In this document: positions 8,207-35,904 of the stretch, piece after piece | Layout: every line of letters starts with the position of its first letter | Position numbering within the stretch: position 1 is the first letter of the stretch | DNA from: Picochlorum sp. 'celeri' | Lineage: Eukaryota; Chlorophyta; Trebouxiophyceae | Assembly: GCA_010909725.1 (NCBI GenBank) | Contig: JAACMV010000021.1 | Coordinates: 1 to 36,496 of the forward strand | Direction: 5' to 3' | DNA: 36,496 bases | Notes under the pieces: model-generated | The model's database searches: none | What the model saw: only the letters and a program-made list of their open reading frames with translations | What the model was told of the DNA's origin: nothing | Position numbers and translations under genes: made by a program

Positions 8207-8224
8207 GATGCTCGTGCATACCAC

Positions 8225-8552
8225 TGTATAGTATATAATTAATTATTTTACATCAATGGTACTCTCGTGTGCGTTTGAGAGCGGACAGGAATGAAATTGT
8301 TCAAATTCTTATAGTAGCTAATGAAGGAACAGGCAAGAAAGTCGAGAAGCATGAGGGTTCAGAGGTGGGTTCGGAAGAGTATACACATGCATTAATTGTT
8401 TACATTATGAGATTCATACGATATCGACCCCGTAATATCATTTGAGGGGCAGAGAAAGTAATCGAACGACCCTGAGCCATGTGGCACAAGTTTTGGGCTT
8501 TTGCCCCGATGGATGTCGACGAATATGAACACGATTCGTACTGCTTCTAAAT
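8225..8552. other. Divergent intergenic region between yidD and MATE genes
   Basis: 328 nt without a gene. It presumably holds two promoters, but I see no clear TATA box, tRNA or repeat. Confidence 0.4.
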
Positions 8553-11796: not shown

Positions 11797-11835
11797 GCAT
11801 GATTTGATTATGTATATAGAAAGTAGTATGGTCAT

Positions 11836-12052
11836 TAAGTACGGTTGTAATCGCGGAAGAGCCGTAGGATATCGCCACGAGGTCAGGAATCATCTGTAAA
11901 TAAAACATTAAAAAGTCAGCAACGTTGACCAAATCACGTATAGATGGCCATACACTCCTTCTGATACCAACGAATATTTCATTTCATAGGATAATGACAG
12001 TACAGGGTCGTGTGGAGTCATTGTGGCACGTGGAGGTGCGTGTGAGGTGACA
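11836..12052. other. Intergenic region between fumarate reductase and WD40 genes
   Basis: A divergent spacer of about 217 nt, AT-rich near 11,896-11,915 (AATAAAACATTAAAAAG). I see no RNA gene or repeat in it. Confidence 0.35.
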
Positions 12053-13636
12053 GTCATGGTAGCAGAGCAAATATTTGAGGGAAACCTTGTGCTCCTTGGG
12101 CCGTACTTGTGCTTGTTCTGTCATATTCCTGTACAATATCTACATTATTGATGCAGTTGGGTAGTAACAGGCGAGTTCAGGCGTTGAAATGTTTTAGGGA
12201 CAAATACCTGCTGTGTGGGTATGGAGACTGTCCCTTGCCCACACGGGGGAAGACGTCTTCGGATGGTATTGATGTGGACAAGCCTCGAGATGTTCAAAGC
12301 ACTGGCATTTTGGTGGTGGATTGTCGTGACGGCAGGATTGTATGTGATGTGAGTGTGCCAGTTCAGAAGGGGAGTTCTCGTGATGATATTGTCTCCCTGG
12401 AAATCAAACCAATAGAGGAAGGTGTAGAAGTGATTTTTGTGACATCCAAAGGATACGTATGGAAGGCGCATCTCGACGTCGGAGACGAGGAGTTATCGCT
12501 GAGATCAATCGACTATATGGGGAATTTCATTGATGCGGGCAGAGAAGATTCACCCATGGAGGCTGTGGTAGAGGATGCTTTGTCAGAGCCTACCCGGCAG
12601 CATGACGAAGAAAAAGATCACATGGATGAGGTTGTCGTTAATCACACTGGGCCAAGGTTTATTCCGCAGCTCGGATATAGAGGGCCAATGGATGGATACA
12701 CATATTGGGCACCACCAAATGGGGAGCAAGGCTACTACAGAGACGATGTCATGCAGGGCATTATGAATCAAAAAACGGTACATGAAGATGGAGAGGAGGA
12801 GTCTGACGACGTGAGATGTGATACTCTGGAGACTGTGTACAAGAGTTTTATACGGTGTTTGTTGCCCTTGGGAAGTGCGTCATCTGAGTGCATCATTAGT
12901 TCGCGGGGCCCAGAGGACGGTGTTTTGTATCTTTGCTCTTGGAAGCTGCTAGAAAACGGGAAATCGTTGTTCTCGTGTGAGAAGGGACTATTGGGTCACG
13001 CGAGCGGGGTGCTGTGTCTTGCTGCATCTCCTGATGGTACATACGTTGTATCAGGCTCATACGACCAGACTATTCGCGTATGGGATACCCGTACTTGGAA
13101 ATGTCTAAAAGTATTAAAAGGTCATGGTGGTGGCATCAAAAGCTTGGTGTTTACTCGAGACGGATCTCTGCTGTTTTCAACCTCCTCTGACAACACTATC
13201 AGGGTATGTGGACGTGTGATATGCCCATGTGCAACGAAATGCATCATTTGAACTTTTATTCTATCTGTAGGTATGGTCTACATCCACGTGGATGTGTATG
13301 AGACATTTGCATGGCAGGCATGAGGATGCAACTTGGCCTGTCTGCATGGATATTCATGAGCCCAACGGGAACGGAAGGCCTAGGTTCCTTGTGTCTGGAT
13401 CGAACGGGTTATTTGGAGGAAGCACGTTAAAAATATTCGATATCGATTCTGGAAATTGTCTGGTAACATTTGCGCAGCTGCGTTTCGATCATAAAGGAAG
13501 CTGCACAGCACTTTGCATTGCAGCCGATGGCAGCACAGTATTCACTGCAGCAAGCGATTCTACCCTCGCCGGTTGGGCATGTAGCTTTGAGAACAAGGAG
13601 AAGAAACCTCTGTTGCGTGGTGGGTTTTTTGGCTGA
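12053..13636 (+). CDS. WD40-repeat protein
   Basis: WD40 propellers serve as protein-binding scaffolds. The clear repeats are in the C-terminal half: LGHASGVLCLAASPDGTYVV..GSYDQTIRVWDTRTW, then LKGHGGGIKSLVFTRDGSLL..SSDNTIR|VWSTSTW, then a degenerate blade ending IKEAA-region and DSTLAGW. The intron 13,204-13,270 (67 nt, GTATGT..CTGTAG, phase 0) splits the second blade exactly before VWS. The N-terminal 250 residues have weak blade-like pairs and an acidic insert (DEEKDHMDE). The start is uncertain. The frame is open from 12109 without an early ATG (first ATG 12151); an ATG at 12056, spliced by a GTGCTC..TGCAG intron of about 74 nt, would add 11 residues. The C-terminus is also uncertain, because a run of six T at 13,625-13,630 may hide a 30-residue acidic tail ending at 13,718. 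Confidence 0.65.
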
Positions 13637-13908
13637 CAGAGAAAAACTCCCCAAGAGGGATTTGGAACCCATGGTGAAGTGGCTTGATGAAGCAAGTGAA
13701 GAGGAGGAGGACGAGTAGAGCAGCTATGACTACAATCTTCGTTGGCGACATACTTGTATAAAAGCTTGCATTCCATGTTACAATATGCACTGCCGCATGT
13801 AATAAACCAATCGAAAGTTGACGAAGAGAGCGTTTGTTTCCGTATTTAAGAAACTCCCTGGAAATTCGTGGTTCGACTTTGTATATGTGAACAATTCCTT
13901 ACAGGCAT

Positions 13909-14022
13909 GATTCGTTCATACCATCCAGAATACACCCGATCCCGTCCGATCTCGGAGTTAAGCTGGATTGGGCCGGACCAGTACTGTGGACAGAGATGAC
14001 ACGGGAAGCCCGGTGACGAATC
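13909..14022 (+). rRNA. 5S ribosomal RNA gene
   Basis: This is a 114-nt gene with the terminal stem GATTCGT (13909-13915) pairing with ACGAATC (14016-14022). The interior carries the eukaryotic 5S words CATACCATC, ACACCCGATCCCGTCCGATC, TCGGAGTTAAGC and GTACTGTGG. The internal RNA polymerase III promoter is visible: box A AGTTAAGCTGG at 13956-13966 and the box C region around 13,985-14,005. It lies as a single copy between the WD40 gene and the LINE array. It encodes the 5S RNA of the large ribosomal subunit. Confidence 0.9.
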
Positions 14023-14026
14023 TTTT
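14023..14026 (+). terminator. RNA polymerase III terminator of the 5S gene
   Basis: TTTT follows immediately after the closing stem of the 5S RNA, the standard Pol III stop. Confidence 0.75.
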
Positions 14027-14205
14027 GTGCGGCGTCGGGTGTATCCCACAGGCGCTGGTAGAGAGGAGGGAAGCCCGAGGAAGGGTGAGCTTCGCCAGGC
14101 ACTTGAGGAAAGCGAACGAATGACTTTTCTTTCTTGGAGAGACGTTTTTTGGATTTTTTTTGTTTTCTCAGAATTTGCGCCCTTTTTTCGGTTTGTTTTT
14201 GCAAA
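14027..14205. other. T-rich spacer between the 5S gene and the LINE array
   Basis: The first half is GC-balanced with no feature I recognise. The second half (about 14,120-14,205) is rich in T runs, including TTTTTTTTG and CCTTTTTTCGG. It is the probable landing zone of the first LINE, whose poly(A) tail (as T on +) starts at 14206. Confidence 0.4.
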
Positions 14206-14445
14206 TTTTTTTTTTTTTTTTTTTTTTTTTTGGTTCTGTAAGCTACAAAGAAGTGAGAAAATCTCGACTGACACGGAGTTGGCCTGCCTGGCCACTCCAA
14301 ATGCAGGTGGTCCTCCCAGCAGGGCTCCTGAATCAAGAGAACCTTGACCAGATGGAGCTCTGCCACATGTGCATGAAGCCAACCATGCACAGGTGCCCAG
14401 ATACCTGCCCAGGTGATGTGGGGGTTGCACCCACTAAAAACTCAC

Positions 14446-14455
14446 TCCTTATATA
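14446..14455 (-). promoter_or_regulatory. TATA box in the 3' UTR of LINE copy A
   Basis: TATATAAGGA on the minus strand, about 220 nt before the tail and pointing out of the array towards the 5S gene. It is the same decamer as in host promoters at 871 and 6114. Confidence 0.45.
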
Positions 14456-15495
14456 CCACAGTCCACGTGTTCCACAGAGCGCCTCGGCGTGGGGTCTCTG
14501 AGAGGAGTCTCAGAAACCTCACTGGAAGTGCTCCGTGAGAACTGCCGTACCCAGGGGGCGTCGGCTCTTGGGGTAGTGGGTGCCTCAGCATGACTCTCCA
14601 AAAGAGCTGAGGCCTGTGGTTGAGAGCCACCATGATCTTCCAACGAAAGACCATGGGCACCACTTGACTCTCGGTGACCTATGTTGTGAGGGGAGGTTGC
14701 CTCCTCCCTCGCCCTGTCCCGTGCCTCCATCAAAGACACCACTTCCTCTGATCCCCACAGCTTTCCCATATGGGTGGGCATACTAATCCCCAAAAATGGG
14801 CTTGTGGCGATGCACAGGGGGACAGGGGCTTGAGTAACATGCTCGGAGGATGCTGTAGGAGCAAACTCTGGATGTTCTCCTCTGGCTGACCCCAACAACC
14901 ATGCCAAGGGTCCACTCCAGTTTCCTGATGAGCGGTGATGGCCTTGGCGATCCAATCTCCCAGCACTTGGTCGCGAATCACCGCGTATGCCGGGCAGTGA
15001 AGCAAGAGATGTTCGAGAGAGTCCTCCGTGTGGCTTTCGCAGCTGGCGCACCAGGAGCGATAGGAGGGAGGAAGCAGCCGAGCTCGAGAGCCTCGGGCAG
15101 CATTCCAGATCCCTCCTGTGCGGGGCCCGTGCCAGCCAGTGAAAGCCACGAGAGTACCCCTCCGCAGTCGAATATGAAAGATAATTATTTGTAGATGAAT
15201 AATTAGCTTCCACATAGGCGTTGTACCCTGAAGAGTGGCTCCTGTCGGTGGCGAGGTGGCGTTCCCACGTGATGAATTGGACCTGTTTGGCGAGTTGCTT
15301 GGGGGTCTTGTCGAGGGGCGAGAATCCATGTCGATTCTGTAACCTCGTCATGAAGGCCTTGGTGCGTTGGACCAGCGTGTGTTTGCCCCTCCTGGCTGGG
15401 AGGCTAAACAGGGTGCCAATCCAAGTCCCAAGGTCTGGCCACTTCCTCCAGGCTCGGGCTGCTCTCCCTGCAGCGATGGCAGGGAGGGTGGGGAG
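14449..15495 (-). pseudogene. LINE copy A, C-terminal polyprotein fragment
   Basis: This fragment encodes the region after the reverse transcriptase, starting near LPTLPAIAAGRAARAWRKW, then the Cys/His knuckle region (CASCESHTEDSLEH followed by HC) and the 3' end PWVRQFSRSTSSEV. It lacks endonuclease and RT. One frameshift is seen: the knuckle word is read in an overlapping frame (14,730-15,329) relative to the C-terminal tail. The frame is open upstream through the A-tail of element B, so a read-through product with a short poly-Lys would be possible. It has no function by itself as far as I can see. Confidence 0.7.
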
Positions 15496-15779
15496 TTTTT
15501 TTTTTGGTTCTGTATGTAAACAAAGAAGTGAGAAAATCCGGATGACACTGGGTTCGTCTGTACATGACAGATGGTTCCCCCTCATGATGGAGTCTCCACC
15601 ATGACTCGGTATACTCTTCCCTACTGTGCCCGAGGTGACTAGATACCATTCCAGGTGATGTGGGAGTTGCACCCACTAAAGCAAACCCGAGGTCGCCGTG
15701 CCTGCTCCTCATCTGGGGGTGTTGTGGACATCGATGCCGCGTCCGTTCGGGATCCGCGATTTTCAGCAGCCCCTCCAAT

Positions 15780-15782
<3 letters not shown>
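15496..15782 (-). mobile_element. Element B: internally deleted LINE relative (family 2), non-autonomous
   Basis: It has a ten-T tail (15496-15505) and the 3' end TTCTCACTTCTTTGTTTACA on the element strand, plus a 3' UTR shared with the insert inside copy D up to about 15,681. It then jumps to about 100 nt (15,682-15,782) that resemble the 5' coding region of copies C-E in diverged form (GTGCCTGCTCCT, CCGTTCGGGAT and CCGCGAT on +). So a sister-family element has lost nearly its whole body. It carries no full ORF. It abuts the tail of copy C. Confidence 0.65.
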
Positions 15783-15821
<39 letters not shown>

Positions 15822-16029
15822 GTTCTGTAAGCATACAAAGAAGTGAGAAAATCTCGACTGACACGGAGTTGCCTGCTGCCTCAAATGCAGGTGGTCCTCC
15901 CAGCAGGGCTCCTGAATCAAGAGAACCTCGACCATGTGGAGCTCTGCCACGTGTGCATGAAGCCAACCATGCACAGGTGCCCAGATACCTGCCCAGGTGA
16001 TGTGGGGGTTGCACCCACTAAAAACTCAC

Positions 16030-16039
16030 TCCTTATATA
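16030..16039 (-). promoter_or_regulatory. TATA box in the 3' UTR of LINE copy C
   Basis: TATATAAGGA on the minus strand, about 210 nt upstream of the tail and pointing towards element B. Confidence 0.45.
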
Positions 16040-16102
16040 CACAGTCCACGTGTTCCACAGAGCGCCTCGGCGTGGGGTCTCCGAGAGGGAGTCTCAGAAA
16101 CC

Positions 16103-18392
16103 TCACTGGAAGTGCGCCGTGAGAACTCTGCCGTACCCAGGGGGCGTCGGCTCTTGGGGTAGTGGGCGCCTCAGCATGACTCTCCAAAGAGCTGAGGCCT
16201 GTGGTTGAGAGCCACCATGATCTTCCAACGAAAGATCATGGGCACCACTTGACTCTCGGTGACCTATGTTGTGAGGGGAGGTTGCCTCCTCCCTCGCCCT
16301 GTCCCGTGCCTCCATCAAAGACACCACTTCCTCTGATCCCCACAGCTTTCCCATATGGGTGGGCATACTAATCCCCAAAAAATGGGCTGTGGCGATGCAC
16401 AGGGGGACAGGGGCTTGAGTAACATGCTCGGAGGATGCTGTAGGAGCAAACTCTGGATGTTCTCCTCTGGCTGACCCCAACAACCATTGCCAAGGGTCCA
16501 CTCCAGTTTCCTGATGAGCGGTGATGGCCTTGGCGATCCAATCTCCCAGCACTTGGTCGCGAATCACCGCGTATGCCGGGCAGTGAAGCAAGAGATGTTC
16601 GAGAGAGTCCTCCGTGTGGCTGTCGCAGCTGGCGCACCAGGAGCGATAGGAGGGAGGAAGCAGCCGAGCTCGAGAGCCTCGGGCAGCATTCCAGATCCCT
16701 CCTGTGCGGGCCCGTGCAGCCAGTGAAAGCCACGAGAGTACCCCTCCCGCAGTCGAATATGAAAGATAATTATTTGTAGAGGAATAATTAGCTTCCATAT
16801 ATGCGTTGTACCCTGAAGAGTGGCTCCTGTCGGCTGGCGAGGGTGGACGTTCCCACGTGATGAATTGGACCTGTTTGGCGAGTTTGCTTGGGGGGTCTTG
16901 TCGAGGGGCGAGAATCCATGTCGATTCTGTAACCTCGTCATGAAGGCCTTGGTGCGTTGGACCAGCGTGTGTTTGCCCCTCTGGCTGGAAGGCTAAACAA
17001 GGTGCCAATCCAAGTCCCAAGGTCTGGCCACTTCCTCCAGGCTCGGGCTGCTCTCCCTGCAGCGATGGCAGGAAGGGTGGGGAGTTCCAGCTCAGTGGAT
17101 AGTGTCGCGGACGCTATCGTATGAGTGGCCTTGCCCCTGACAGCCATGTTGAGAGCCATGGAGAGCACTCGTTGGAGCGGTTGCATCGCGGTGCGCCCGC
17201 TCGAGCCAAACAGTTCGCCTCCGTATGCCAATTGAGGGATCAGTTGTCCCTTGATGGCCAGCAGCTTGCTCTTCAGGGGGATAGAGGGCGTCGCCAGCAT
17301 AGGTCGCATGGCTCGGAGCGTCGCCAAGCCTTTGGCACGTCTGTCGAGGATGATGTCCCTCACGTCGAGGCGTGGGGTGACAACAATCCCGAGATACGTG
17401 TACTTGTCGACTACTGGAATGGTACCGCGTTGGATGGTGAAGGGGCCAATGGTGGGTCGAGGCAGCTGTGTAGAATCACCTACGCCCAGTGCCATGACGC
17501 CACACTTGGCGTGTCCCACCTCCATGCCGAAGCGGTCACACCAGTCTCCGAGCGTGTTGAGCGAGTCCTGCAGCTCTGCTTCTGACTCGGCCAGGATGAC
17601 TGTGTCGTCTGCGAAGAGCAGGCCAGGAATACGAGGGTCTTCATCAGCGTGCGGGTCGCGAAGATTCGGGACCGTCACGCCTCGGATCCCATCCAGTGCC
17701 GAGTCGATGAAGAGATCGAACAGGACTGGGCTCAACGTATCGCCTTGCTTGACGCCTCTATGCAATGGGAACGTACCTGTGGAAGTAAGAGTACCTGCAG
17801 AGCATTTGAAACCAGCGTGAGAATACAGCGTGGAGATGAAGTTCAAACACGCGCCGTTGATCCCCCGAGAACTAAGTACATGAAGAAGGCACCGATGGGG
17901 GACCATATCGAATGCCTTCCTCAGATCTATAAATGCAGCAAAGGTGACCTGGTCCACTTGGCGTCGGCGGAGGGCAATCTCGTAGAGCGTCGCAGCTTGA
18001 GCTGGGCATTCCTGTAGTCTCCTGAATCCAGCTTGTTCCTTTCTGAGTCCTCTGGGTCCTTCTATAAGATGTGTGTGCAGCCTGTCTGATATCACCCTGG
18101 TAGTGAGTTTGAGGAGGCAGTCGATGAGTGAGATGCCTCGGTGATTATCCAACAGCGTAGCATCTTTGTGTGGCTTGGGGATGCTAATGATCAGGCTGCT
18201 GTGCATGTCTTCTGGGATGTCGCCATGAAAGATAGAGTTGACGGCTTCCAGTAGCATTCTTCCCATTGGCGTTGTGGGTTCCAACCTGGGGTGTCTTCTT
18301 TGCAGAGTTTGTACACCTCGTTGGTGATGCCATCCATTCCTGGTGCTTTGCCTGTTGCGGATGTGGCGAGAGCTGCTTGTATCTCCGGCCAC
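16103..18392 (-). pseudogene. LINE copy C reverse transcriptase and C-terminus (frameshifted)
   Basis: The main RT frame (16938-18392) has the canonical blocks: SIPKPHKDATLLDNHRGISL, EQAGFRRLQECPAQA, FIDLRKAFDMVPHR, GVKQGDTLSPVLFDLFIDS and the catalytic GLLFADDTVILAE (FADD at about 17,604-17,615). The thumb follows (KSKLLAIKGQLIPQLAYGG). Near 16,980 one C is missing relative to copy D, which moves the C-terminal part (RAKAF..HGF region and the CASCDSHTEDSLEH knuckle) to another frame (16103-17020). An extra CT pair near 16,131 then causes an early stop. At least three lesions counting the one near 18,290, so this copy cannot make a full protein as sequenced. Confidence 0.85.
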
Positions 18393-20090
18393 GTGATGTC
18401 TCTATTCAGTTCCAAAACAGTTGGTCGCTGTGGCAGGGGGCATCGCTCGGCCCAGGACGCAAGGGTGGTGGTGTCTGCGTCTCCTGCCAATGTGCTGTAG
18501 TGCTGCTCCGTCGTGTGCAAGATGGCTTCGTTGCTCAATTGCAGCTGATTATTTGGTCCTTTCACGGGCTGCAGTGTCTGTGGGCGTCTCTGTTTGCCTT
18601 GTAGGATATTGATGAACTTCCAGAAGATGGGACTGGAAGGTCCTGATGCTGCAGCCCGGTGCACAAATTTGTGAAAACTGGATGTCTGGTCACGCCTGAC
18701 CAATCGCCTCGCTTCCTGGTGTAATGCCTTATATGTTGCCATCGTATCTGTGTTGAGGTTTCTGTACATCTCCAGTCGCGCCTTGTTTCGTTTCCGTAGC
18801 ACTGTGCGCGTTCTGTGTGCAAGCTTTCTGATGGGCTTTTCTCGATGGCATGTGGTCTGGAAGCATTCTTGCTGGTCAACAATCCTGTGCAATGTGTCTT
18901 TGAATTTCCCTGTAAAGCTTTCTGCGTGTGTGTCGTCCGAGTCTGTGTGTTCCGAAGCCTCCATCTCCTCCGTAGTCTGTAGCAAGTCGTCCCAATAGTT
19001 GTGCTCCGTAATGTCTTTGGCAGTCCCTATGTGATCCAGCCGCAGTTTCTTCCTTGGTGGCGGCGGGATATCGCGTTGTCCTTCGTATCTACATTTCACA
19101 GCGAGTGGCCAGTGGTCTGAGGATGCTTCTGTGGTGAGTACCCTGGCTGAGAGCAGTTGAGCCCGGGCATGTTCGTTCACCAGAATGTGGTCTATCGCGC
19201 TTCCTTGTGTGTACGGCCTCCAGAATGTCGTGGCATCTCCTCGCACTGGCAGCAAATCTAATGGCCATCCTCTCCGTGCTATAAGTGTGCTCATGGCCTC
19301 CAAGTCGTGATTGAAGTCCCCCATGATGACGATGGGAGTCCCCGGTCGTTCCGCTGTGATCCTGTGTATGTCTGCATCCAGTTTGTTCAACGTCTCACGC
19401 CGATCGTCTCTCAGATGCTCCCCTGGTACATATATGGTGGCGATGTAGCAGGTGACTGGCATCAATTGGTGCACTTGGGCCCATATGATGTTGGGATGGG
19501 CATACACTTCTCTGAGCTCTGTCGTGGGCAAGCTCCTGTGTGTCACTAGTGCTACTCCTCTGACCCCTGGCCCCGTCTTGTACCTCTGTATGACGTTATA
19601 GTGGCTGAAGGCCAGCGGGAAGGAGTCTTCTTCAACCTGATGTTCTTGCAGCCCCACCACTCCGAATCTGCGAGCTTTAAAGCGCCAATTGAGCTCGCCT
19701 CGTTTGTTGGCAGCCGTGGTGATGTTCCATGTGGCAAGAACGTTGAAGGGTTTCGATCCTTGGCGTGCGTTGTTCTCCTCGGTTCGGCTGCTCCGACCAT
19801 CGCCTGCTCCTCCTCTTCCTTGGCGGGCCCAAGGGAATCCAGCCCCAACTCGGCGGGTCCGAGTATGTCCAGCTCCAGTGTCTTCCAGCCCGTGTCGTCG
19901 TGCCTGCTCCTTCATTCTGCGCCTGTAGTTTTTGTGGCGTCGAATATGCCACTTCCGAGCCGTTCGGGATGCCGCGATCTGGCTGATCAGCCCTGCGGGA
20001 GCACCCTCGATCCAGACGTCAAAGCGGACCCGTTGGTCAATCCTTTGCCTAGCCGCTCGAACTTGTTTCACGTGACGAAGTGTAGCCGCA
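18191..20090 (-). pseudogene. LINE copy C endonuclease and start of RT (frameshifted)
   Basis: This is an APE-type endonuclease with all the key motifs: LATWNI (Asn), GLQEHQ (Glu), YVPGEH, IVIMGDFNHDLEA, GSAIDHILVNEHA and SSDHWPLAVKC (catalytic His). The enzyme nicks target DNA so that the 3' OH primes reverse transcription. A charged linker follows, then the first RT block GKAPGMDGITNEVYK. A single-base deletion near 18,290 (+ strand CCTGGGG, where copies D and E have CCTAGGGG) shifts the frame away from the rest of RT. The frame stays open to the truncated 5' edge; the first start-like codon is a GTG at 20071. Relative to other LINE classes the EN/RT wording fits an L1-like element, not RTE; that is a judgement by eye. 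Confidence 0.85.
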
Positions 20091-20322
20091 TTTTTTTTTT
20101 TTTTTTTTTTTTGGTTCTGTAAGCATACAAAGAAGTGAGAAAATCTCGACTGACACGGAGTTGGCCTGCTGCCTCAAATGCAGGTGGTCCTCCCAGCAGG
20201 GCTCCTGAATCAAGAGAACCTTGACCAGATGGAGCTCTGCCACATGTGCATGAAGCCAACCATGCACAGGTGCCCAGATACCTGCCCAGGTGATGTGGGG
20301 GTTGCACCCACTAAAAACTCAC

Positions 20323-20332
20323 TCCTTATATA
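20323..20332 (-). promoter_or_regulatory. TATA box in the 3' UTR of LINE copy D
   Basis: TATATAAGGA on the minus strand, about 220 nt before the tail, reading towards copy C, which starts at 20090. Confidence 0.5.
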
Positions 20333-23300
20333 CCACAGTCCACGTGTTCCACAGAGCGCCTCGGCGTGGGGTCTCTGAGAGGAGTCTCAGAAACCTCACT
20401 GGAAGTGCTCCGTGAGAACTGCCGTACCCAGGGGGCGTCGGCTCTTGGGGTAGTGGGCGCCTCAGCATGACTCTCCAAAAGAGCTGAGGCCTGTGGTTGA
20501 GAGCCACCATGATCTTCCAACGAAAGACCATGGGCACCACTTGACTCTCGGTGACCGATGTTGTGAGGGGAGGTTGCCTCCTCCCTCGCCCTGTCCCGTG
20601 CCTCCATCAAAGACACCACTTCCTCTGATCCCCACAGCTTTCCCATATGGGTGGGCATACTAATCCCCAAAAAATGGGCTGTGGCGATGCACAGGGGGAC
20701 AGGGGCTTGAGTAACATGCTCGGAGGATGCTGTAGGAGCAAACTCTGGATGTTCTCCTCTGGCTGACCCCAACAACCATTGCCAAGGGTCCACTCCAGTT
20801 TCCTGATGAGCGGTGATGGCCTTGGCGATCCAATCTCCCAGCACTTGGTCGCGAATCACCGCGTATGCCGGGCAGTGAAGCAAGAGATGTTCGAGAGAGT
20901 CCTCCGTGTGGCTGTCGCAGCTGGCGCACCAGGAGCGATAGGAGGGAGGAAGCAGCCGAGCTCGAGAGCCTCGGGCAGCATTCCAGATCCCTCCTGTGCG
21001 GGCCCGTGCCAGCCAGTGAAAGCCACGAGAGTACCCCTCCGCAGTCGAATATGAAAGATAATTATTTGTAGAGGAATAATTAGCTTCCATATATGCGTTG
21101 TACCCTGAAGAGTGGCTCCTGTCGGCGGCGAGGTGACGTTCCCATGTGATGAATTGGACCTGTTTGGCGAGTTGCTTGGGGGTCTTGTCGAGGGGCGAGA
21201 ATCCATGTCGATTCTGTAACCTCGTCATGAAGGCCTTGGTGCGTTGGACCAGCGTGTGTTTGCCCCTCCTGGCTGGAAGGCTAAACAAGGTGCCAATCCA
21301 AGTCCCAAGGTCTGGCCACTTCCTCCAGGCTCGGGCTGCTCTCCCTGCAGCGATGGCAGGAAGGGTGGGGAGTTCCAGCTCAGTGGATAGTGTCGCGGAC
21401 GCTATCGTATGAGTGGCCTTGCCCCTGACAGCCACGTTGAGAGCCATGGAGAGCACTCGTTGGAGCGGTTGCATCGCGGTGCGCCCGCTCGAGCCAAACA
21501 GTTCGCCTCCGTATGCCAATTGAGGGATCAGTTGTCCCTTGATGGCCAGCAGCTTGCTCTTCAGGGGGATAGAGGGCGTCGCCAGCATAGGTCGCATGGC
21601 TCGGAGCGTCGTCAAGCCTTTGGCACGTCTGTCGAGGATGATGTCCCTCACGTCGAGGCGTGGGGTGACAACAATCCCGAGATACGTGTACTTGTCGACT
21701 ACTGGAATGGTACCGCGTTGGATGGTGAAGGGGCCAATGGTGGGTCGAGGCAGCTGTGTAGAATCACCTACGCCCAGTGCCATGACGCCACACTTGGCGT
21801 GTCCCACCTCCATGCCGAAGCGGTCACACCAGTCTCCGAACGTGTTGAGCGAGTCCTGCAGCTCTGCTTCTGACTCGGCCAGGATGACTGTGTCGTCTGC
21901 GAAGAGCAGGCCAGGAATACGAGGGTCTTCATCAGCGTGCGGGTCGCGAAGATTCGGGACCGTCACGCCTCGGATCCCATCCAGCGCCGAGTCGATGAAG
22001 AGATCGAACAGGACTGGGCTCAACGTATCGCCTTGCTTGACACCTCTATGCAATGGGAACGTACCTGTGGAAGTAAGAGTACCTGCAGAGCATTTGAAAC
22101 CAGCGTGAGAATACAGCGTGGAAATGAAGTTCAAACACGCGCCGTTGATCCCCCGAGAACTAAGTACATGAAGAAGGCACCGATGGGGGACCATATCGAA
22201 TGCCTTCCTCAGATCTATAAATGCAGCAAAGGTGACCTGGTCCACTTGGCGTCGGCGGAGGGCAATCTCGTAGAGCGTCGCAGCTTGAGCTGGGCATTCC
22301 TGTAGTCTCCTGAATCCAGCTTGTTCCTTTCTGAGTCCTCTGGGTCCTTCTATAAGATGTGTGTGCAGCCTGTCTGATATCACCCTGGTAGTGAGTTTGA
22401 GGAGGCAGTCGATGAGTGAGATGCCTCGGTGATTATCCAACAACGTAGCATCTTTGTGTGGCTTGGGGATGCTGATGATCAGGCTGCTGTGCATGTCTTC
22501 TGGGATGTCGCCATGAAAGATAGAGTTAACGGCTTCCAGCAGCATTCTTCCCATTGGTGTTGTGGGTTCCAACCTAGGGGTGTCTTCTTTGCAGAGTTTG
22601 TACACCTCGTTTGTGATGCCATCCATTCCTGGTGCTTTGCCTGTTGCAGAGGTGGCGAGAGCTGCTTGTATCTCCGGCCACGTGATGTCTCTATTCAGTT
22701 CCAAAACAGTTGGTCGCTGTGGCAAGGGGCATCGCTCGGCCCAGGACGCAAGGGTGGTGGTGTCTGCGTCGCCTGCCAATGTGCTGTAGTGCTGCTCCGT
22801 CGTGTGCAAGATGGCTTCGTTGCTCAATTGCAGCTGATTATTTGGTCCTTTCACGGGCTGCAGTGTCTGTGGGCGTCTCTGTTTGCCTTGTAGGATATTG
22901 ATGAACTTCCAGAAGATGGGACTGGAAGGTCCTGATGCTGCAGCCCGGTGCACAAATTTGTGAAAACTGGATGTCTGGTCACGCCTGACCAATCGCCTCG
23001 CTTCCTGGTGTAATGCCTTGTATGTTGCCATCGTATCTGTGTTGAGGTTTCTGTACATCTCCAGTCGCGCCTTGTTTCGTTTCCGTAGCACTGTGCGCGT
23101 TCTGTGTGCAAGCTTTCTGATGGGCTTTTCTCGATGGCATGTGGTCTGGAAGCATTCTTGCTGGTCAAGAATCCTGTGCAATGTGTCTTTGAATTTCCCT
23201 GTAAAGCTTTCTGCGTGTGTGTCGTCCGAGTCTGTGTGTTCCATGTCAGCCTCCATGTCCTCCGTAGTCTGTAGCAAGTCGTCCCAATAGTTGTGCTCCG

Positions 23301-23994
23301 TAATGTCTTTGGCAGTCCCTATGTGATCCAGCCGCAGTTTCTTCCTTGGTGGCGGTGGGATATCGCGTTGTCCTTCGTATCTGCATTTCACAGCGAGTGG
23401 CCAGTGGTCTGAGGATGCCTCTGTGGTGAGTACCCTGGCTGAGAGCAGGTGAGCCCGGGCATGTTCGTTCACCAGAATGTGGTCTATCGCGCTTCCTTGT
23501 GTGTACGGCCTCCAGAATGTCGTGGCATCTCCTCGCACTGGCAGCAAATCTAATGGCCATCCTCTGACAGATGGTTCCCCCTCATGATGGAGTCTCCACC
23601 ATGACTCGGTATACTCTTCCCTACTGTGCCCGAGGTGACTAGATACCATTCCAGGTGATGTGGGAGTTGCACCCACTAAAAACTCACTCCTTGGACAACA
23701 GTCCACGTGTTCCACTGAGCAGCCCCACAGAGTGTGGGGGGCTCGATGAGAACTGCCATACCCATTGGGCTTCGGCTCTTGGGGTAAGAAAAGTGGTGAA
23801 GTATCACCGGTGGAGCAGGAGGTGGTCAACCAGGAGGTCAACGCCTGCGTGCCAACAGCCCGAAGGCCTCTCACTAGGCCATGAGTAACAGCCAGACCAA
23901 CCCAAGAAGGGCGGTATGGGTGCTCTCCTTCACTGCCCCCAGTCCGTGCTATAAGTGTGCTCATGGCCTCCAAGTCGTGATTGAAGTCCCCCAT
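20326..23994 (-). CDS. LINE copy D polyprotein: endonuclease C-half, RT, Cys/His knuckle (1222 aa frame)
   Basis: The open frame begins at MGDFNHDLEA, which is an internal endonuclease motif and not a natural start. Residues 18-143 come from the 378-bp insert, in frame. The endonuclease then continues with SAIDHILVN (near 170) and SSDHWPL (near 200). RT runs from about 452 (GKAPGMDG) through FIDLRKAFDMV and GVKQGDTLSPVL to FADD at residues 698-701. A Cys/His knuckle, CASCDSHTEDSLEHLLLHC, occupies 1023-1041. The end is the 3' coding tail PWVRQFSRSTSSEV...VEHVDC. All catalytic RT residues are present. The N-terminal half of the endonuclease is in another frame because of one missing base near 24,020. 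RT activity might survive; target nicking would not. Confidence 0.85.
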   Translation of the reverse strand: MGDFNHDLEAMSTLIARTGGSEGEHPYRPSWVGLAVTHGLVRGLRAVGTQALTSWLTTSCSTGDTSPLFLPQEPKPNGYGSSHRAPHTLWGCSVEHVDCCPRSEFLVGATPTSPGMVSSHLGHSREEYTESWWRLHHEGEPSVRGWPLDLLPVRGDATTFWRPYTQGSAIDHILVNEHARAHLLSARVLTTEASSDHWPLAVKCRYEGQRDIPPPPRKKLRLDHIGTAKDITEHNYWDDLLQTTEDMEADMEHTDSDDTHAESFTGKFKDTLHRILDQQECFQTTCHREKPIRKLAHRTRTVLRKRNKARLEMYRNLNTDTMATYKALHQEARRLVRRDQTSSFHKFVHRAAASGPSSPIFWKFINILQGKQRRPQTLQPVKGPNNQLQLSNEAILHTTEQHYSTLAGDADTTTLASWAERCPLPQRPTVLELNRDITWPEIQAALATSATGKAPGMDGITNEVYKLCKEDTPRLEPTTPMGRMLLEAVNSIFHGDIPEDMHSSLIISIPKPHKDATLLDNHRGISLIDCLLKLTTRVISDRLHTHLIEGPRGLRKEQAGFRRLQECPAQAATLYEIALRRRQVDQVTFAAFIDLRKAFDMVPHRCLLHVLSSRGINGACLNFISTLYSHAGFKCSAGTLTSTGTFPLHRGVKQGDTLSPVLFDLFIDSALDGIRGVTVPNLRDPHADEDPRIPGLLFADDTVILAESEAELQDSLNTFGDWCDRFGMEVGHAKCGVMALGVGDSTQLPRPTIGPFTIQRGTIPVVDKYTYLGIVVTPRLDVRDIILDRRAKGLTTLRAMRPMLATPSIPLKSKLLAIKGQLIPQLAYGGELFGSSGRTAMQPLQRVLSMALNVAVRGKATHTIASATLSTELELPTLPAIAAGRAARAWRKWPDLGTWIGTLFSLPARRGKHTLVQRTKAFMTRLQNRHGFSPLDKTPKQLAKQVQFITWERHLAADRSHSSGYNAYMEANYSSTNNYLSYSTAEGYSRGFHWLARARTGGIWNAARGSRARLLPPSYRSWCASCDSHTEDSLEHLLLHCPAYAVIRDQVLGDWIAKAITAHQETGVDPWQWLLGSARGEHPEFAPTASSEHVTQAPVPLCIATAHFLGISMPTHMGKLWGSEEVVSLMEARDRAREEATSPHNIGHRESSGAHGLSLEDHGGSQPQASALLESHAEAPTTPRADAPWVRQFSRSTSSEVSETPLRDPTPRRSVEHVDCGI
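23566..23943 (-). mobile_element. 378-bp fragment of LINE family 2 inserted in copy D
   Basis: Copies C and E read CATCCTCT directly followed by CCGTGCTAT; copy D has 378 extra bases between them. The insert, on the element strand, contains a diverged version of the 3' coding end (PQEPKPNGYGSSHRAP) and a 3' UTR identical for over 100 nt to element B. It stops before the last roughly 60 nt and has no A-tail. It lacks the TATA box (CTCCTTGGACAAC on +). No target-site duplication is visible. Confidence 0.75.
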
Positions 23995-24679
23995 GATGAC
24001 GATGGGAGTCCCCGGTCGCTCGCGGTGATCATGTGTATGTCTGCATCCAGTTTGTTCAACGTCTCACGCCGATCGTCTCTCAGATGCTCCCCTGGTACAT
24101 ATATGGTGGCGATGTAGCAGGTGACTGGCATCAATTGGTGCACTTGGGCCCATATGATGTTGGGATGGGCATACACTTCTCTGAGCTCTGTCGTGGGCAA
24201 GCTCCTGTGTGTCACTAGTGCTACTCCTCTGACCCCTGGCCCCGTCTTGTACCTCTGTATGACGTTATAGTGGCTGAAGGCCAGCGGGAAGGAGTCTTCT
24301 TCAACCTGATGTTCTTGCAGCCCTACCACTCCGAATCTGCGAGCTTTAAAGCGCCAATTGAGCTCGCCTCGTTTGTTGGCAGCCGTGGTGATGTTCCATG
24401 TGGCAAGAACGTTGAAGGGTGTCGATCCTTGGCGTGCGTTGTTCTCCTCGGTTCGGCTGCTCCGACCATCGCCTGCTCCTCCTCTTCCTTGGCGGGCCCA
24501 AGGGAATCCAGCCCCAACTCGGCGGGTCCGAGTATGTCCAGCTCCAGTGTCTTCCGGCCCGTGTCGTCGTGCCTGCTCCTTCATTCTGCGCCTGTAGTTT
24601 TTGTGGCGTCGAATATGCCACTTCCAAGCCGTTCGGGATGCCGCGATCTGGCTGATCAGCCCTTCGGGAGCACCCTCGA
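23961..24679 (-). pseudogene. LINE copy D endonuclease N-terminal half
   Basis: It carries LATWNI, GLQEHQVEEDSF and the YVPGEHLRDDRRE block of the APE endonuclease, then goes out of frame near 24,020 just before GDFN. Upstream the same frame is open through the A-tail of copy E (a poly-Lys run) into the 3' UTR of copy E, up to 24902. A transcript starting in copy E could therefore be translated into this copy, if a non-ATG start were used. Confidence 0.7.
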
Positions 24680-24917
24680 TTTTTTTTTTTTTTTTTTTTT
24701 TTTTTTTGGTTCTGTAAGCATACAAAGAAGTGAGAAAATCTCGACTGACACGGAGTTGGCCTGCTGCCTCAAATGCAGGTGGTCCTCCCAGCAGGGCTCC
24801 TGAATCAAGAGAACCTCGACCATGTGGAGCTCTGCCACGTGTGCATGAAGCCAACCATGCACAGGTGCCCAGATACCTGCCCAGGTGATGTGGGGGTTGC
24901 ACCCACTAAAAACTCAC

Positions 24918-24927
24918 TCCTTATATA
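24918..24927 (-). promoter_or_regulatory. TATA box in the 3' UTR of LINE copy E
   Basis: TATATAAGGA on the minus strand, about 220 nt upstream of the tail, reading into copy D. Confidence 0.5.
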
Positions 24928-27749
24928 CCACAGTCCACGTGTTCCACAGGGCGCCTCGGCGTGGGGTCTCCGAGAGGAGTCTCAGAAACCTCACTGGAAG
25001 TGCGCCGTGAGAACTGCCGTACCCAGGGGGCGTCGGCTCTTGGGGTAGTGGGCGCCTCAGCATGACTCTCCAAAAGAGCTGAGGCCTGTGGTTGAGAGCC
25101 ACCATGATCTTCCAACGAAAGATCATGGGCACCACTTGACTCTCGGTGACCTATGTTGTGAGGGGAGGTTGCCTCCTCCCTCGCCCTGTCCCGTGCCTCC
25201 ATCAAAGACACCACTTCCTCTGATCCCCACAGCTTTCCCATATGGGTGGGCATACTAATCCCCAAAAAATGGGCTGTGGCGATGCACAGGGGGACAGGGG
25301 CTTGAGTAACATGCTCGGAGGATGCTGTAGGAGCAAACTCTGGATGTTCTCCTCTGGCTGACCCCAACAACCATTGCCAAGGGTCCACTCCAGTTTCCTG
25401 ATGAGCGGTGATGGCCTTGGCGATCCAATCTCCCAGCACTTGGTCGCGAATCACCGCGTATGCCGGGCAGTGAAGCAAGAGATGTTCGAGAGAGTCCTCC
25501 GTGTGGCTTTCGCAGCTGGCGCACCAGGAGCGATAGGAGGGAGGAAGCAGCCGAGCTCGAGAGCCTCGGGCAGCATTCCAGATCCCTCCTGTGCGGGCCC
25601 GTGCAAGCCAGTGAAAGCCACGAGAGTACCCCTCCGCAGTCGAATATGAAAGATAATTATTTGTAGATGAATAATTAGCTTCCACATAGGCGTTGTACCC
25701 TGAAGAGTGGCTCCTGTCGGTGGCGAGGTGGCGTTCCCACGTGAGGAATTGGACCTGTTTGGCGAGTTGCTTGGGGGTCTTGTCGAGGGGCGAGAATCCA
25801 TGTCGATTCTGTAACCTCGTCATGAAGGCCTTGGTGCGTTGGACCAGCGTGTGTTTGCCCCTCCTGGCTGGGAGGCTAAACAAGGTGCCAATCCAAGTCC
25901 CAAGGTCTGGCCACTTCCTCCAGGCTCGGGCTGCTCTCCCTGCAGCGATGGCAGGAAGGGTGGGGAGTTCCAGCTCAGTGGATAGTGTCGCGGACGCTAT
26001 CGTATGAGTGGCCTTGCCCCTGACAGCCATGTTGAGAGCCATGGAGAGCACTCGTTGGAGCGGTTGCATCGCGGTGCGCCCGCTCGAGCCAAACAGTTCG
26101 CCTCCGTATGCCAATTGAGGGATCAGTTGTCCCTTGATGGCCAGCAGCTTGCTCTTCAGGGGGATAGAGGGCGTCGCCAGCATAGGTCGCATGGCTCGGA
26201 GCGTCGCCAAGCCTTTGGCACGTCTGTCGAGGATGATGTCCCTCACGTCGAGGCGTGGGGTGACAACAATCCCGAGATACGTGTACTTGTCGACTACTGG
26301 AATGGTACCGCGTTGGATGGTGAAGGGGCCAATGGTGGGTCGAGGCAGCTGTGTAGAATCACCTACGCCCAGTGCCATGACGCCACACTTGGCGTGTCCC
26401 ACCTCCATGCCGAAGCGGTCACACCAGTCTCCGAACGTGTTGAGCGAGTCCTGCAGCTCTGCTTCCGACTCGGCCAGGATGACTGTGTCGTCTGCGAAGA
26501 GCAGGCCAGGAATACGGGGGTCTTCATCGGCGTGCGGGTCGCGAAGATTCGGTACCGTCACGCCTCGGATCCCATCCAGTGCCGAGTCGATGAAGAGATC
26601 GAACAGGACTGGGCTCAACGTATCGCCTTGCTTGACGCCTCTATGCAATGGGAACGTACCTGTGGAAGTAAGAGTACCTGCAGAGCATTTGAAACCAGCG
26701 TGAGAATACAGCGTGGAGATGAAGTTCAAACACGCGCCGTTGATCCCCCGAGAACTAAGTACATGAAGAAGGCACCGATGGGGGACCATATCGAATGCCT
26801 TCCTCAGATCTATAAATGCAGCAAAGGTGACCTGGTCCACTTGGCGTCGGCGGAGGGCAATCTCGTAGAGCGTCGCAGCTTGAGCTGGGCATTCCTGTAG
26901 TCTCCTGAATCCAGCTTGTTCCTTTCTGAGTCCTCTGGGTCCTTCTATAAGATGTGTGTGCAGCCTGTCTGATATCACCCTGGTAGTGAGTTTGAGGAGG
27001 CAGTCGATGAGTGAGATGCCTCGGTGATTATCCAACAGCGTAGCATCTTTGTGTGGCTTGGGGATGCTAATGATCAGGCTGCTGTGCATGTCTTCTGGGA
27101 TGTCGCCATGAAAGATAGAGTTGACGGCTTCCAGTAGCATTCTTCCCATTGGCGTTGTGGGTTCCAACCTAGGGGTGTCTTCTTTGCAGAGTTTGTACAC
27201 CTCGTTTGTGATGCCATCCATTCCTGGTGCTTTGCCTGTTGCAGAGGTGGCGAGAGCTGCTTGTATCTCCGGCCACGTGATGTCTCTATTCAGTTCCAAA
27301 ACAGTTGGTCGCTGGGGCAAGGGGCATCGCTCGGCCCAGGACGCAAGGGGGGTGGTATCTGCGTCTCCTGCCAATGTGCTGTAATGCTGCTCCGTCGTGT
27401 GCAAAATGGCTTCGTTGCTCAGTTGCAGCTGGTTATTTGGTCCTTTCCACGGGCTGCAGTGTCTGTGGGCGTCTCTGTTTGCCTTGTAGAATATTGATGA
27501 ACTTCCAGAAGATGGGACTGGAAGGTCCTGATGCTGCAGCCCTGTGTACAAATTTGTGGAAACTGGATGTCTGGTCACGCTGACCATCGCCTCGCTTCCT
27601 GGTGTAATGCCTTGTATGTTGCCATCGTATCTGTGTTGAGGTTTCTGTACATCTCCAGTCGTGCCTGGTTTCGTTTTCGTAGCACTGTGCGCGTTCTGTG
27701 TGCGAGCTTTCTGATGGGCTTTTCTCGATGGCATGTGGTTTGGAAGCAT
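24921..27749 (-). CDS. LINE copy E reverse transcriptase and C-terminus (942 aa frame)
   Basis: This frame covers the complete RT: GKAPGMDGITNEVYK, FIDLRKAFDMV, GVKQGDTLSPVLFD, FADD at residues 418-421 (26,487-26,498), thumb, the CASCESHTEDSLEH..HC knuckle and the same C-terminal tail as copy D. It has no internal stop, so RT could be functional. The N-terminal 100 residues of the frame are out of register with copies C and D: the linker words appear partly in this frame and partly in the overlapping one at 27433-27762. The junction to the endonuclease is therefore broken by two or more single-base indels. Confidence 0.85.
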   Translation of the reverse strand: MLPNHMPSRKAHQKARTQNAHSATKTKPGTTGDVQKPQHRYDGNIQGITPGSEAMVSVTRHPVSTNLYTGLQHQDLPVPSSGSSSIFYKANRDAHRHCSPWKGPNNQLQLSNEAILHTTEQHYSTLAGDADTTPLASWAERCPLPQRPTVLELNRDITWPEIQAALATSATGKAPGMDGITNEVYKLCKEDTPRLEPTTPMGRMLLEAVNSIFHGDIPEDMHSSLIISIPKPHKDATLLDNHRGISLIDCLLKLTTRVISDRLHTHLIEGPRGLRKEQAGFRRLQECPAQAATLYEIALRRRQVDQVTFAAFIDLRKAFDMVPHRCLLHVLSSRGINGACLNFISTLYSHAGFKCSAGTLTSTGTFPLHRGVKQGDTLSPVLFDLFIDSALDGIRGVTVPNLRDPHADEDPRIPGLLFADDTVILAESEAELQDSLNTFGDWCDRFGMEVGHAKCGVMALGVGDSTQLPRPTIGPFTIQRGTIPVVDKYTYLGIVVTPRLDVRDIILDRRAKGLATLRAMRPMLATPSIPLKSKLLAIKGQLIPQLAYGGELFGSSGRTAMQPLQRVLSMALNMAVRGKATHTIASATLSTELELPTLPAIAAGRAARAWRKWPDLGTWIGTLFSLPARRGKHTLVQRTKAFMTRLQNRHGFSPLDKTPKQLAKQVQFLTWERHLATDRSHSSGYNAYVEANYSSTNNYLSYSTAEGYSRGFHWLARARTGGIWNAARGSRARLLPPSYRSWCASCESHTEDSLEHLLLHCPAYAVIRDQVLGDWIAKAITAHQETGVDPWQWLLGSARGEHPEFAPTASSEHVTQAPVPLCIATAHFLGISMPTHMGKLWGSEEVVSLMEARDRAREEATSPHNIGHRESSGAHDLSLEDHGGSQPQASALLESHAEAPTTPRADAPWVRQFSRRTSSEVSETPLGDPTPRRPVEHVDCGI

Positions 27750-28863
27750 TCTTGCTGGTCAAGAATCCTGTGCAATGTGTCTTTGAATTTTCCTGTAAGG
27801 CTTTCTGTTTGTGTGTCGTCTGAGTCTGTGTGTTCCAATGTCACCTCCATGTCCTCCGTAGTCTGTAGCAAGTTGGTCCCATAGTTGTGCTCCGTAATGT
27901 CTTTGCAGTCCCAATGTGATCCAGCCGCAGTTTCTTCCTTGGTGGCGGCGGGATATCGCGTTGTCCTTCGTATCTACATTTCACAGCGAGTGGCCAGTGG
28001 TCTGAGGATGCTTCTGTGGTGAGTACCCTGGCTGATAGCAGTTGAGCCCGGGCATGTTCGTTCACCAGAATGTGGTCTATAGCGCTTCCTTGTGTGTACG
28101 GCCTCCAGAATGTCGTGGCAATCTCCTCGCACTGGCAGCAAATCTAATGGCCATCCTCTCCGTGCTATAAGTGTGCTCATGGCCTCCAAGTCGTGATTGA
28201 AGTCCCCCCATGATGACGATGGGAGTCCCCGGTCGCTCCGCTGTGATCCTGTGTATGTCTGCATCCAGGTTTGTTTCAACGTCTCACGCCGATCGTCTCT
28301 CAGATGCTCCCCTGGTACATATATGGTGGCGATGTAGCAGGTGACTGGCATCAATTGGTGCACTTGGGCCCATATGATGTTGGGATGGGCATACACTTCT
28401 CTGAGCTCTGTCGTGGGCAAGCTCCTGTGTGTCACTAGTGCTACTCCTCTGACCCCTGGCCCCGTCTTGTACCTCTGTATGACGTTATAGTGGCTGAAGG
28501 CCAGCGGGAAGGAGTCTTCTTCAACCTGATGTTCTTGCAGCCCACCACTCCGAATCTGCGAGCTTTAAAGCGCCAATTGAGCTCGCCTCGTTTGTTGGCA
28601 GCCGTGGTGATGTTCCATGTGGCAAGAACGTTGAAGGGTTTCGATCCTTGGCGTGCGTTGTTCTCCTCGGTTCGGCTGCTCCGACCATCGCCTGCTCCTC
28701 CTCTTCCTTGGCGGGCCCAAGGGAATCCAGCCCCAACTCGGCGGGTCCGAGTATGTCCAGCTCCAGTGTCTTCCGGCCCGTGTCGTCGTGCCTGCTCCTT
28801 CATTCTGCGCCTGTAGTTTTTGTGGCGTCGAATATTGCACTTCCGAGCCGTTCGGGATGCCGC

Positions 28864-28865
<2 letters not shown>
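27750..28865 (-). pseudogene. LINE copy E endonuclease, broken by many small indels
   Basis: All endonuclease motifs can be followed, but in three alternating frames: KARRFGVVG and LATWNI in 28441-28865, TELREVYAHPNI and YVPGEHLRDDRRE in 27974-28435, and SSDHWPLAVKCRYEGQ in 27841-28065. Compared with copies C and D there are extra bases (CCCCCCATG, GCAATCTCC, CAGGTTTGTTTC on +) and lost ones (CTTTGCAGTCC on +). Either the copy is decayed or this part of the assembly is poor; the same indel density continues to the window end, favouring the latter. Confidence 0.75.

Positions 28866-28896
<31 letters not shown>
28866..28896 (-). mobile_element. Poly(A) tail of a further LINE copy (F), rest lost in gap
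   Basis: Thirty T followed by one G, exactly as the tail and first base (GGTTCTG) of the other copies, and then the assembly gap. The array therefore continues beyond copy E for an unknown length. Confidence 0.75.
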
Positions 28897-28996
28897 NNNN
28901 NNNNNNNNNNNNNNNNNNNNNNNNNNNNNNNNNNNNNNNNNNNNNNNNNNNNNNNNNNNNNNNNNNNNNNNNNNNNNNNNNNNNNNNNNNNNNNNN
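28897..28996. other. Assembly gap of 100 N
   Basis: Exactly 100 N, a conventional placeholder for a gap of unknown size. It lies between the LINE array and the MRD1 gene and hides the 5' end of MRD1. Confidence 0.98.
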
Positions 28997-35637: not shown

Positions 35638-35669
<32 letters not shown>

Positions 35670-35676
35670 TACTGCG

Positions 35677-35724
<48 letters not shown>

Positions 35725-35864
35725 GCTCGAAGACGATTAGATACCGTCCTAGTCTCAACCATAACGATGCCGACTAGGGGATCGGCGGGTGTTTTTTGAT
35801 GACCCCGCCGGCACCATTATGAAGAAATCAAAGTTTTTGGGTTCCCGGGGGAGTATGGTCCAAG

Positions 35865-35904
<40 letters not shown>

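What the first reader, a model, noticed from the sequence alone, without database searches (positions are those of the whole stretch)
14206..28896. Head-to-tail LINE array that seems to grow by inserting into its own poly(A) tails
Seen: at least six units (A, B, C, D, E and the tail of F), all on the minus strand. Each 5'-truncated end sits directly on the poly(A) tail of the next unit, with no spacer and no visible target-site duplication. Inference: the endonuclease nicks inside an existing A/T tract, so the new copy's tail merges with the old one. The duplication is then just more A, and repeated rounds give a tandem array. Zepp of Chlorella and ZeppL at green-algal centromeres are described LINE clusters of similar build, so this may be a centromere- or telomere-type element in another lineage.
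Basis: partly seen in the sequence, partly recalled or inferred. Interest (0 to 1): 0.75.

Follow-up and report, generated by a model that had tools for sequence, protein, structure and literature searches.

The report
Self-stacking LINE arrays by 5S genes
In what appears to be the genome of the tiny green alga Picochlorum celeri, a jumping gene stacks copies of itself head to tail beside 5S ribosomal RNA genes, probably because the run of A's that each copy leaves behind is nearly the only such landing pad in the genome; it resembles known algal centromere elements but is not found once per chromosome.

Summary
The array is real in the assembly: at five of five junctions a truncated unit sits directly on the next unit's poly(A) tail, with no spacer and no TSD. 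Corrections: unit B is mostly a short element sharing the LINE 3' end, unit D holds a piece of it, and F is only a tail running into a gap. The assembly fits the phased diploid Picochlorum celeri genome (inferred). The LINE is about 4.5 kb, young, with APE endonuclease and RT. Its 51 located 3' ends (LINE and SINE) lie on 10 of 30 contigs, so a one-per-chromosome centromere is not supported. Two array bases lie within 200 bp of a 5S gene, one with a 15-bp TSD. Of 64 runs of 20 or more A's in 27.4 Mb, 58 lie in these loci, which makes insertion into self-supplied tails plausible. Template jumping, recombination and misassembly stay open: some units are identical or mosaic across arrays, and the window's contig may be redundant. 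Zepp/ZeppL are the closest known kind, and nested insertion is in print for them. New here: 5S anchoring, a partner SINE, and scarcity of other long A tracts.

The parts
13825..13839 (+). Intact counterpart of the 15-bp target duplicated at the second (beta) array site; 83-69 bp upstream of the 5S gene
   Evidence: AGAGAGCGTTTGTTT here; AGAGAGCGTTTCTTT at C9:9329 and C9:14723
13908..14024 (+). 5S rRNA gene, 181 bp before the array's host-side end
   Evidence: Rfam RF00001, 93.9 bits, cut-off 38
14206..14231 (-). poly(A) tail of unit A, at the junction with host DNA
   Evidence: 26 T on + strand
14232..15495 (-). LINE unit A, truncated to the last ~1.26 kb
   Evidence: 97-98% identical to C, D and E
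15496..15782 (-). unit B: 10-A tail, last ~175 bp of a SINE-like element sharing the LINE 3' end, then ~100 bp of other origin
   Evidence: 3' end GGTTCTGTATGTAAACAAAG; the C1 counterpart has a different 5' part
15783..15820 (-). poly(A) tail of unit C
   Evidence: 38 T
15821..20090 (-). LINE unit C, starts at position 227 of the full-length yardstick
   Evidence: same start at C21:50441 and C10:600796
18191..20071 (-). open frame of unit C with the endonuclease domain
   Evidence: 626 aa, PF03372 E=2.9e-12
20091..20112 (-). poly(A) tail of unit D
   Evidence: 22 T
20113..24679 (-). LINE unit D, starts at position 307
20326..23994 (-). open frame of unit D with the reverse transcriptase domain
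   Evidence: 1222 aa, PF00078 E=5.8e-30
23566..23942 (-). 380-bp internal piece of the SINE-like element inside unit D, without its ends and without a TSD
   Evidence: 99.5% to C1:23289-23668, part of a ~767-bp insertion with a 12-bp TSD
24680..24707 (-). poly(A) tail of unit E
   Evidence: 28 T
24708..28865 (-). LINE unit E, starts near position 340
   Evidence: position counted by hand
24921..27749 (-). open frame of unit E with the reverse transcriptase domain
   Evidence: 942 aa, PF00078 E=8e-30
28866..28895 (-). poly(A) tail of unit F; its body is lost in a gap
   Evidence: 30 T, then G, then N 28897-28996

Best explanation
A young, poly(A)-tailed LINE with an APE endonuclease and RT moves by target-primed reverse transcription. 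A first copy lands in spacer next to a 5S rRNA gene (shown at two sites, alpha and beta; that 5S genes attract it is inferred). It leaves a tail of about 20-40 A's. Long A tracts are otherwise almost absent from this genome (shown), so the tail is the best place for the next LINE or SINE RNA to prime. The new copy sits in the old tail and its target duplication is just more A's (inferred). Repeats of this build head-to-tail arrays of 5'-truncated units. Recombination or gene conversion then shuffles the units (inferred from identical and mosaic units). The arrays are not centromeres in the one-per-chromosome sense.
For: Junctions: nine different LINE start points lie directly on tails in the sequence held (227, 252, 307, ~340, 510, 526, 784, 3237, ~3244; two of the positions counted by hand), so many separate events. 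TSDs appear where the target is not an A tract: 15 bp at beta (C9:9329/14723), 17 bp for the SINE in C9, 12 bp for the SINE in C1. A tracts: 64 runs of A>=20 in 27.4 Mb; 47 lie at a LINE/SINE 3' end, 11 within 6 kb of one, 6 elsewhere; in the 313,658 bases held, 35 such runs, none classed as unrelated. 5S: alpha base 181 bp downstream, beta site 68 bp upstream of a 5S gene; a ~50-bp piece of 5S upstream flank lies at the host side of the array in ten places. Youth: 21 units differ by at most about 2.6%, some not at all; one copy has an uninterrupted 1313-aa frame with both domains. Literature: as I read Ohshima's Table 3, of 15 green-algal L1 families only L1-1_CR and Zepp end in (A)n (PMC3747384, passage); these are the two described as self-clustering (PMC8226300, PMC3446292, passages).
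Against: Insertion into a tail was not caught in the act: I have no clean allelic pair of empty and filled tail. The two SINE insertions with TSDs and the third LINE site (C16:1117597, next to ...GAGGGTC) lie at targets that are not T-rich, so a T-tract endonuclease is not shown. The TSD-flanked SINEs carry 16-30 extra A's at their 5' end, which template jumping explains better. In C26, the likely other phase of C9, the outer copies of both the beta and the SINE repeat are missing. C1 unit E and the unit at C21:41497-45515 are identical over 3460 sites, and others look mosaic, which points to recombination or chimeric assembly. The 5S genes on C5 and C20 have no LINE near.
Confidence: 0.5

Rival explanations
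1. Template jumping: during one insertion the RT runs off the 5' end of one RNA and continues on the poly(A) tail of a second, so whole head-to-tail stretches are laid down at once with a TSD only at the outer ends.
For: The SINE insertions with visible TSDs have A30 (C9) and A16 (C1) between TSD and SINE 5' end, as if the RT had jumped onto another tail and stopped. LINE pieces of 361 bp (C21, C1) and 295 bp (C10), followed in C21 and C10 by A9/A10, sit between a tail and a full-length copy. End-to-end jumping by the R2 RT is known (title of Bibillo and Eickbush in the reference list of PMC2881922; paper itself not seen).
Against: Units of one array look to be of different age: C1 unit A differs by at least 5.6 per kb from all 20 other units compared, while C1 unit E is identical to units in other arrays; gene conversion could mimic this. 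The C1 and C21 arrays differ in the middle but not at the visible ends.
Confidence: 0.25
2. Recombination: a few junctions arose by insertion and the arrays then grew and spread by unequal exchange, gene conversion and segmental duplication.
For: Identical units across arrays; the junction at position 227 seen three times; a 484-bp spacing of SINE and LINE 3' ends twice in C12 (14105/14589 and 20567/21051); a 4.8-kb beta flank at about 99% in eight places.
Against: Nine different LINE start points need about as many insertion events, unless some are assembly errors.
Confidence: 0.15
3. Assembly artefact: dispersed or allelic copies were strung together or duplicated by the assembler.
For: PacBio reads with N50 9,250 bp (PMC7225527) against ~4.3-kb units; the window's contig ends in an N gap inside the array; the C1 version of its host flank equals a second, inverted copy on C1 (0 of 1465 substitutions) and its two phases differ at only 11 of 14,196 sites, as a redundant haplotig would; C12 and part of C25 have mirrored coordinates; unit D in the window holds a SINE piece without ends; C26 lacks the outer repeats seen in C9.
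Against: Tail-to-truncated-body junctions recur in arrays at both the alpha and beta sites, and the SINE and beta insertions in C9 and the SINE in C1 have proper TSDs.
Confidence: 0.1

Closest known systems
Zepp of Coccomyxa subellipsoidea C-169 (formerly Chlorella vulgaris)
   Same: poly(A)-ended LINE of a trebouxiophyte alga in clusters of nested, mostly 5'-truncated copies (PMC3446292, PMC8226300, PMC3747384, passages)
   Different: [quoted passage not shown] Here: three inferred chromosome pairs and small contigs, several clusters on one chromosome, array bases beside 5S genes. Sequence kinship untested
ZeppL-1_cRei (L1-1_CR) of Chlamydomonas
   Same: poly(A)-ended L1 with localised clusters and a SINE (SINEX-3_CR) sharing its 3' end (PMC8226300, PMC3747384, passages)
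   Different: present at all 15 mapped centromeres and apparently absent elsewhere; not the pattern here
TRE5/TRE3 L1-clade elements of Dictyostelium
   Same: insert upstream (TRE5, opposite orientation, also 37-41 bp upstream of 5S genes) or downstream (TRE3) of Pol III genes (PMC5911963, passages)
   Different: those use mainly tRNA genes; ARAGORN found none in the ten sources scanned here, and only two independent 5S-side sites were seen
HeT-A/TART/TAHRE telomeric arrays of Drosophila
   Same: head-to-tail non-LTR arrays (PMC10088271, passages)
   Different: here the arrays are internal to scaffolds

Membership tests
Zepp/ZeppL | LINE with APE endonuclease and RT | tested here: met
   PF03372 and PF00078 in one 1313-aa frame
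Zepp/ZeppL | ends in poly(A) | tested here: met
   30 LINE/SINE tails of 16-40 A's in the sequence held, and two SINE tails of 9-10
Zepp/ZeppL | clusters of nested or tandem, 5'-truncated copies | tested here: met
Zepp/ZeppL | one cluster per chromosome, absent elsewhere | tested here: not met
   3' ends on 10 of 30 contigs; four cluster regions each on C1 and C21. Gaps and unplaced contigs could hide some
Zepp/ZeppL | RT phylogeny groups with Zepp | not testable with these tools
Zepp/ZeppL | CENH3-bound | not testable with these tools
   needs ChIP
Pol III-gene-targeted L1 (TRE-like) | recurrent insertion at a set distance from Pol III genes | tested here: inconclusive
   two independent sites, +181 and -68 bp of 5S; 5 of 7 5S genes over the cut-off have the LINE within 200 bp, but several are copies of one locus, and only 47 of 904 candidates were scored
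Telomeric non-LTR arrays | located at chromosome ends | tested here: not met
   LINE 3' ends on C1 at 14-93 kb and 390-395 kb, on C10/C16 at about 600 kb and 1.12 Mb; on chromosome-scale contigs only C15/C27 lie within ~5 kb of a scaffold end. CCCTATA repeats at seven scaffold ends

The most novel reading that the evidence does not exclude
Self-clustering of poly(A)-tailed algal LINEs is an emergent result of A-tract scarcity: in a genome almost free of long A runs, each insertion creates the next landing pad. This neutral rule would explain the Zepp, ZeppL and Picochlorum clusters alike and how LINE-based centromeres can start, with Pol III (5S) loci as one kind of seed.
Probability: 0.3. Interest if true: 0.7.

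Novelty: new variant of a known kind. Interest (0 to 1): 0.48.

Why it matters
Zepp-type clusters are taken as centromeres, and why they cluster is open: Blanc et al. weigh a neutral hot spot against a function (PMC3446292, passage). A genome where nearly every long A run belongs to such elements, and where clusters do not follow a one-per-chromosome pattern, offers a simple, testable neutral cause and separates clustering from centromere function. The 5S seeds, if confirmed, would add an algal LINE to those found beside Pol III genes.

Tried and rejected
Centromere reading: rejected on distribution. Telomere reading: no exact TTTAGGG triple repeat; CCCTATA at seven scaffold ends. tRNA targets: ARAGORN, in its bacterial setting, found none in nine loci and the window; it may miss tRNAs with introns. 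A HeT-A-like '5' tag' reading of the A9/A10 before full-length LINEs was dropped, since these A's follow short LINE pieces; for the SINE 5' A runs it stays open. Viral-contig scan for relatives: none, and the tool may leave out records near the window's genome. Comparison with Zepp: not possible. A weak tRNA-like Rfam match in the SINE (24.9 bits, cut-off 40) was not pursued. Higashiyama 1997 and Yamamoto 2003 were not held, so Zepp's mechanism is taken from passages of Craig 2021 and Blanc 2012. Papers: PMC7225527 seen as part 1 of 2 of the whole text; PMC11005252, PMC3446292, PMC8226300, PMC11092101, PMC5911963, PMC12636532, PMC3747384, PMC10088271 and PMC2881922 as passages; others as listings only. 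The search on HeT-A promoter tags found no paper. The listings and the passages show no account of LINE arrays in Picochlorum; da Roza 2024 gives 1.25% LINEs and 12 Hi-C centromeres for another Picochlorum without linking them in those passages. One search used 21 LINE units held over at least 1.2 kb; SINE copies, the C25 copies of C12 and 3' ends held over less were left out. Searches scored only part of their candidates (40 of 66, 48 of 139, 47 of 904), so their counts are lower bounds. Pairing of contigs into phases is inferred from matching coordinates.

Full report
Source. The window is the first 36,496 bases of contig C21 (1,036,242 bases) of a 27,412,692-base, 30-contig assembly. Size and contig number, and an 18S gene at 34,733-36,496 that I read as green algal from recall, fit the phased diploid Picochlorum celeri assembly of Becker et al. 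2020 (27.43 Mb, two phases of 15 scaffolds). The name is inferred. C1 and C21 behave as the two phases of one chromosome; C10/C16, C15/C27, C9/C26 and C12/C25 look like further pairs from matching coordinates.

Observation. Five of five junctions in the window are a truncated body directly on a T-run, all in one orientation, with no TSD seen. The LINE encodes an APE-type endonuclease and an RT; a copy on C1 has a 1313-aa uninterrupted frame. With the natural copy at C21:45912-50414 as yardstick, full length is about 4.5 kb. RT relatives include a 99% match on a 3.1-kb JGI contig, an 84% match labelled Picre1 (which I read as Picochlorum renovo), a 39% match whose cut-off name begins Picoc, mostly unnamed proteins, and chytrid (Batrachochytrium) proteins. 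LINE-1 ORF2 protein is the best PDB match.

Partner SINE. Unit B and the piece in unit D come from an element of about 767 bp that shares the LINE 3' end. It is complete in C9 with a 17-bp TSD and in C1 with a 12-bp TSD; in C26 the outer repeat is missing. Nine of the 49 exact 3'-end matches are of this type, all in array loci. The two TSD-flanked copies have A30 and A16 at the 5' end.

Distribution. The 3'-end pattern occurs 49 times (40 LINE, 9 SINE) and two more 3' ends were found by similarity. All are on C1, C21, C10, C16, C15, C27 and the small contigs C9, C26, C12, C25. One further 279-bp fragment at 90% lies on each of C5 and C20. This is not one cluster per chromosome.

Where arrays start. 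Site alpha: 181 bp downstream of a 5S gene in the window; the paralogous site without the element is seen at C26:14931. In the inverted copy on C21 the array begins only 43 bp from the 5S gene, with about 140 bp of spacer gone. Site beta: in the 5S upstream region, with AGAGAGCGTTTCTTT at C9:9329 and C9:14723, the second copy 68 bp from the 5S gene. A piece of this upstream flank lies beside the array in ten places, mostly copies of one another. Site delta: inside another tailed repeat, about 1.6 kb from a broken 5S copy on C16. Against targeting: of seven 5S genes above cut-off, those on C5 and C20 have no LINE near, and several loci are copies. If alpha and beta are two of three independent host sites, the chance of lying within 200 bp of seven 5S genes is about 2e-7, a figure computed after seeing the pattern.

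A tracts. The assembly has 64 runs of 20 or more A's: 47 at a LINE/SINE 3' end, 11 within 6 kb of one, 6 in other places. Of the 11, two are the gap-side tails (F), three the SINE 5' runs, and six sit at the delta repeat, two of which were read as that repeat's own A run. In the 313,658 bases held, chosen partly for LINEs, all 35 such runs belong to these elements or repeats. So they supply nearly all long A tracts. As I read Ohshima's Table 3, only two of 15 green-algal L1 families end in (A)n, L1-1_CR and Zepp (passage), and both are described as self-clustering.

Age and shuffling. Twenty-one units compared: up to about 2.6% substitutions; C1 unit E and the C21:41497-45515 unit identical over 3460 sites; C and D differ by 17-18 per kb between the phases although they hold the same place. 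Arrays are therefore shuffled by recombination, or the assembly is chimeric there. The window's contig may be a redundant copy: the C1 version of its flank is identical to the inverted copy on C1 (0 of 1465 substitutions), and its two phases differ at 11 of 14,196 sites, while the C21 inverted copy differs from the window at 25 of 1749.

Verdict. A Zepp-like self-stacking LINE in (inferred) Picochlorum, probably growing into tails that it makes itself, with template jumping a serious rival. It is not shown to be a centromere or telomere element. The mechanism class is in print (PMC8226300, PMC3446292); the 5S seeds, the SINE and the A-tract scarcity are what this adds.

Noticed in passing
ends of C3, C5, C6, C7 (both), C8, C15: Seven of 12 CCCTATACCCTATACCC matches lie at scaffold ends, perhaps the telomere repeat; three on C2 and C6 do not, and two are on contigs of unknown length.
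   Followed up: partly
window 8001-14066 and C21/C1 about 55-61 kb: This stretch recurs inverted near 55-61 kb of C1 and C21. Among the 20 contig starts fetched, C1's shares no match over 800 bp with another, unlike most long contigs, so this contig may be wrongly placed.
   Followed up: partly
C16:1115850-1117597 and C15:959575-960300 (L036, L040): Another tailed repeat with 3' end ...ACACGGCTC(A)n follows a broken 5S copy head to tail and holds a LINE insertion; its 5' head resembles the SINE's by eye.
   Followed up: partly
C9:14620-14649, C1:24017-24032: Runs of 30 and 16 A's at the 5' end of TSD-flanked SINE copies: template jump, transcription start in a neighbour's tail, or part of the SINE.
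   Followed up: partly
C10/C16 606-611 kb, C1/C21 84-89 kb, C9/C26, C12/C25: A flank of at least 4.8 kb at about 99% identity in eight places, with different LINE arrays attached; segmental duplication or assembly copies.
   Followed up: partly
C21:36497-41496: 5,000 bases after the window read N; content unknown.
   Followed up: no
C3:11488, C3:15492, C23:11494, C6:562969, C28:546042, C30:784238: The six A>=20 runs not at these loci; owners unknown.
   Followed up: no
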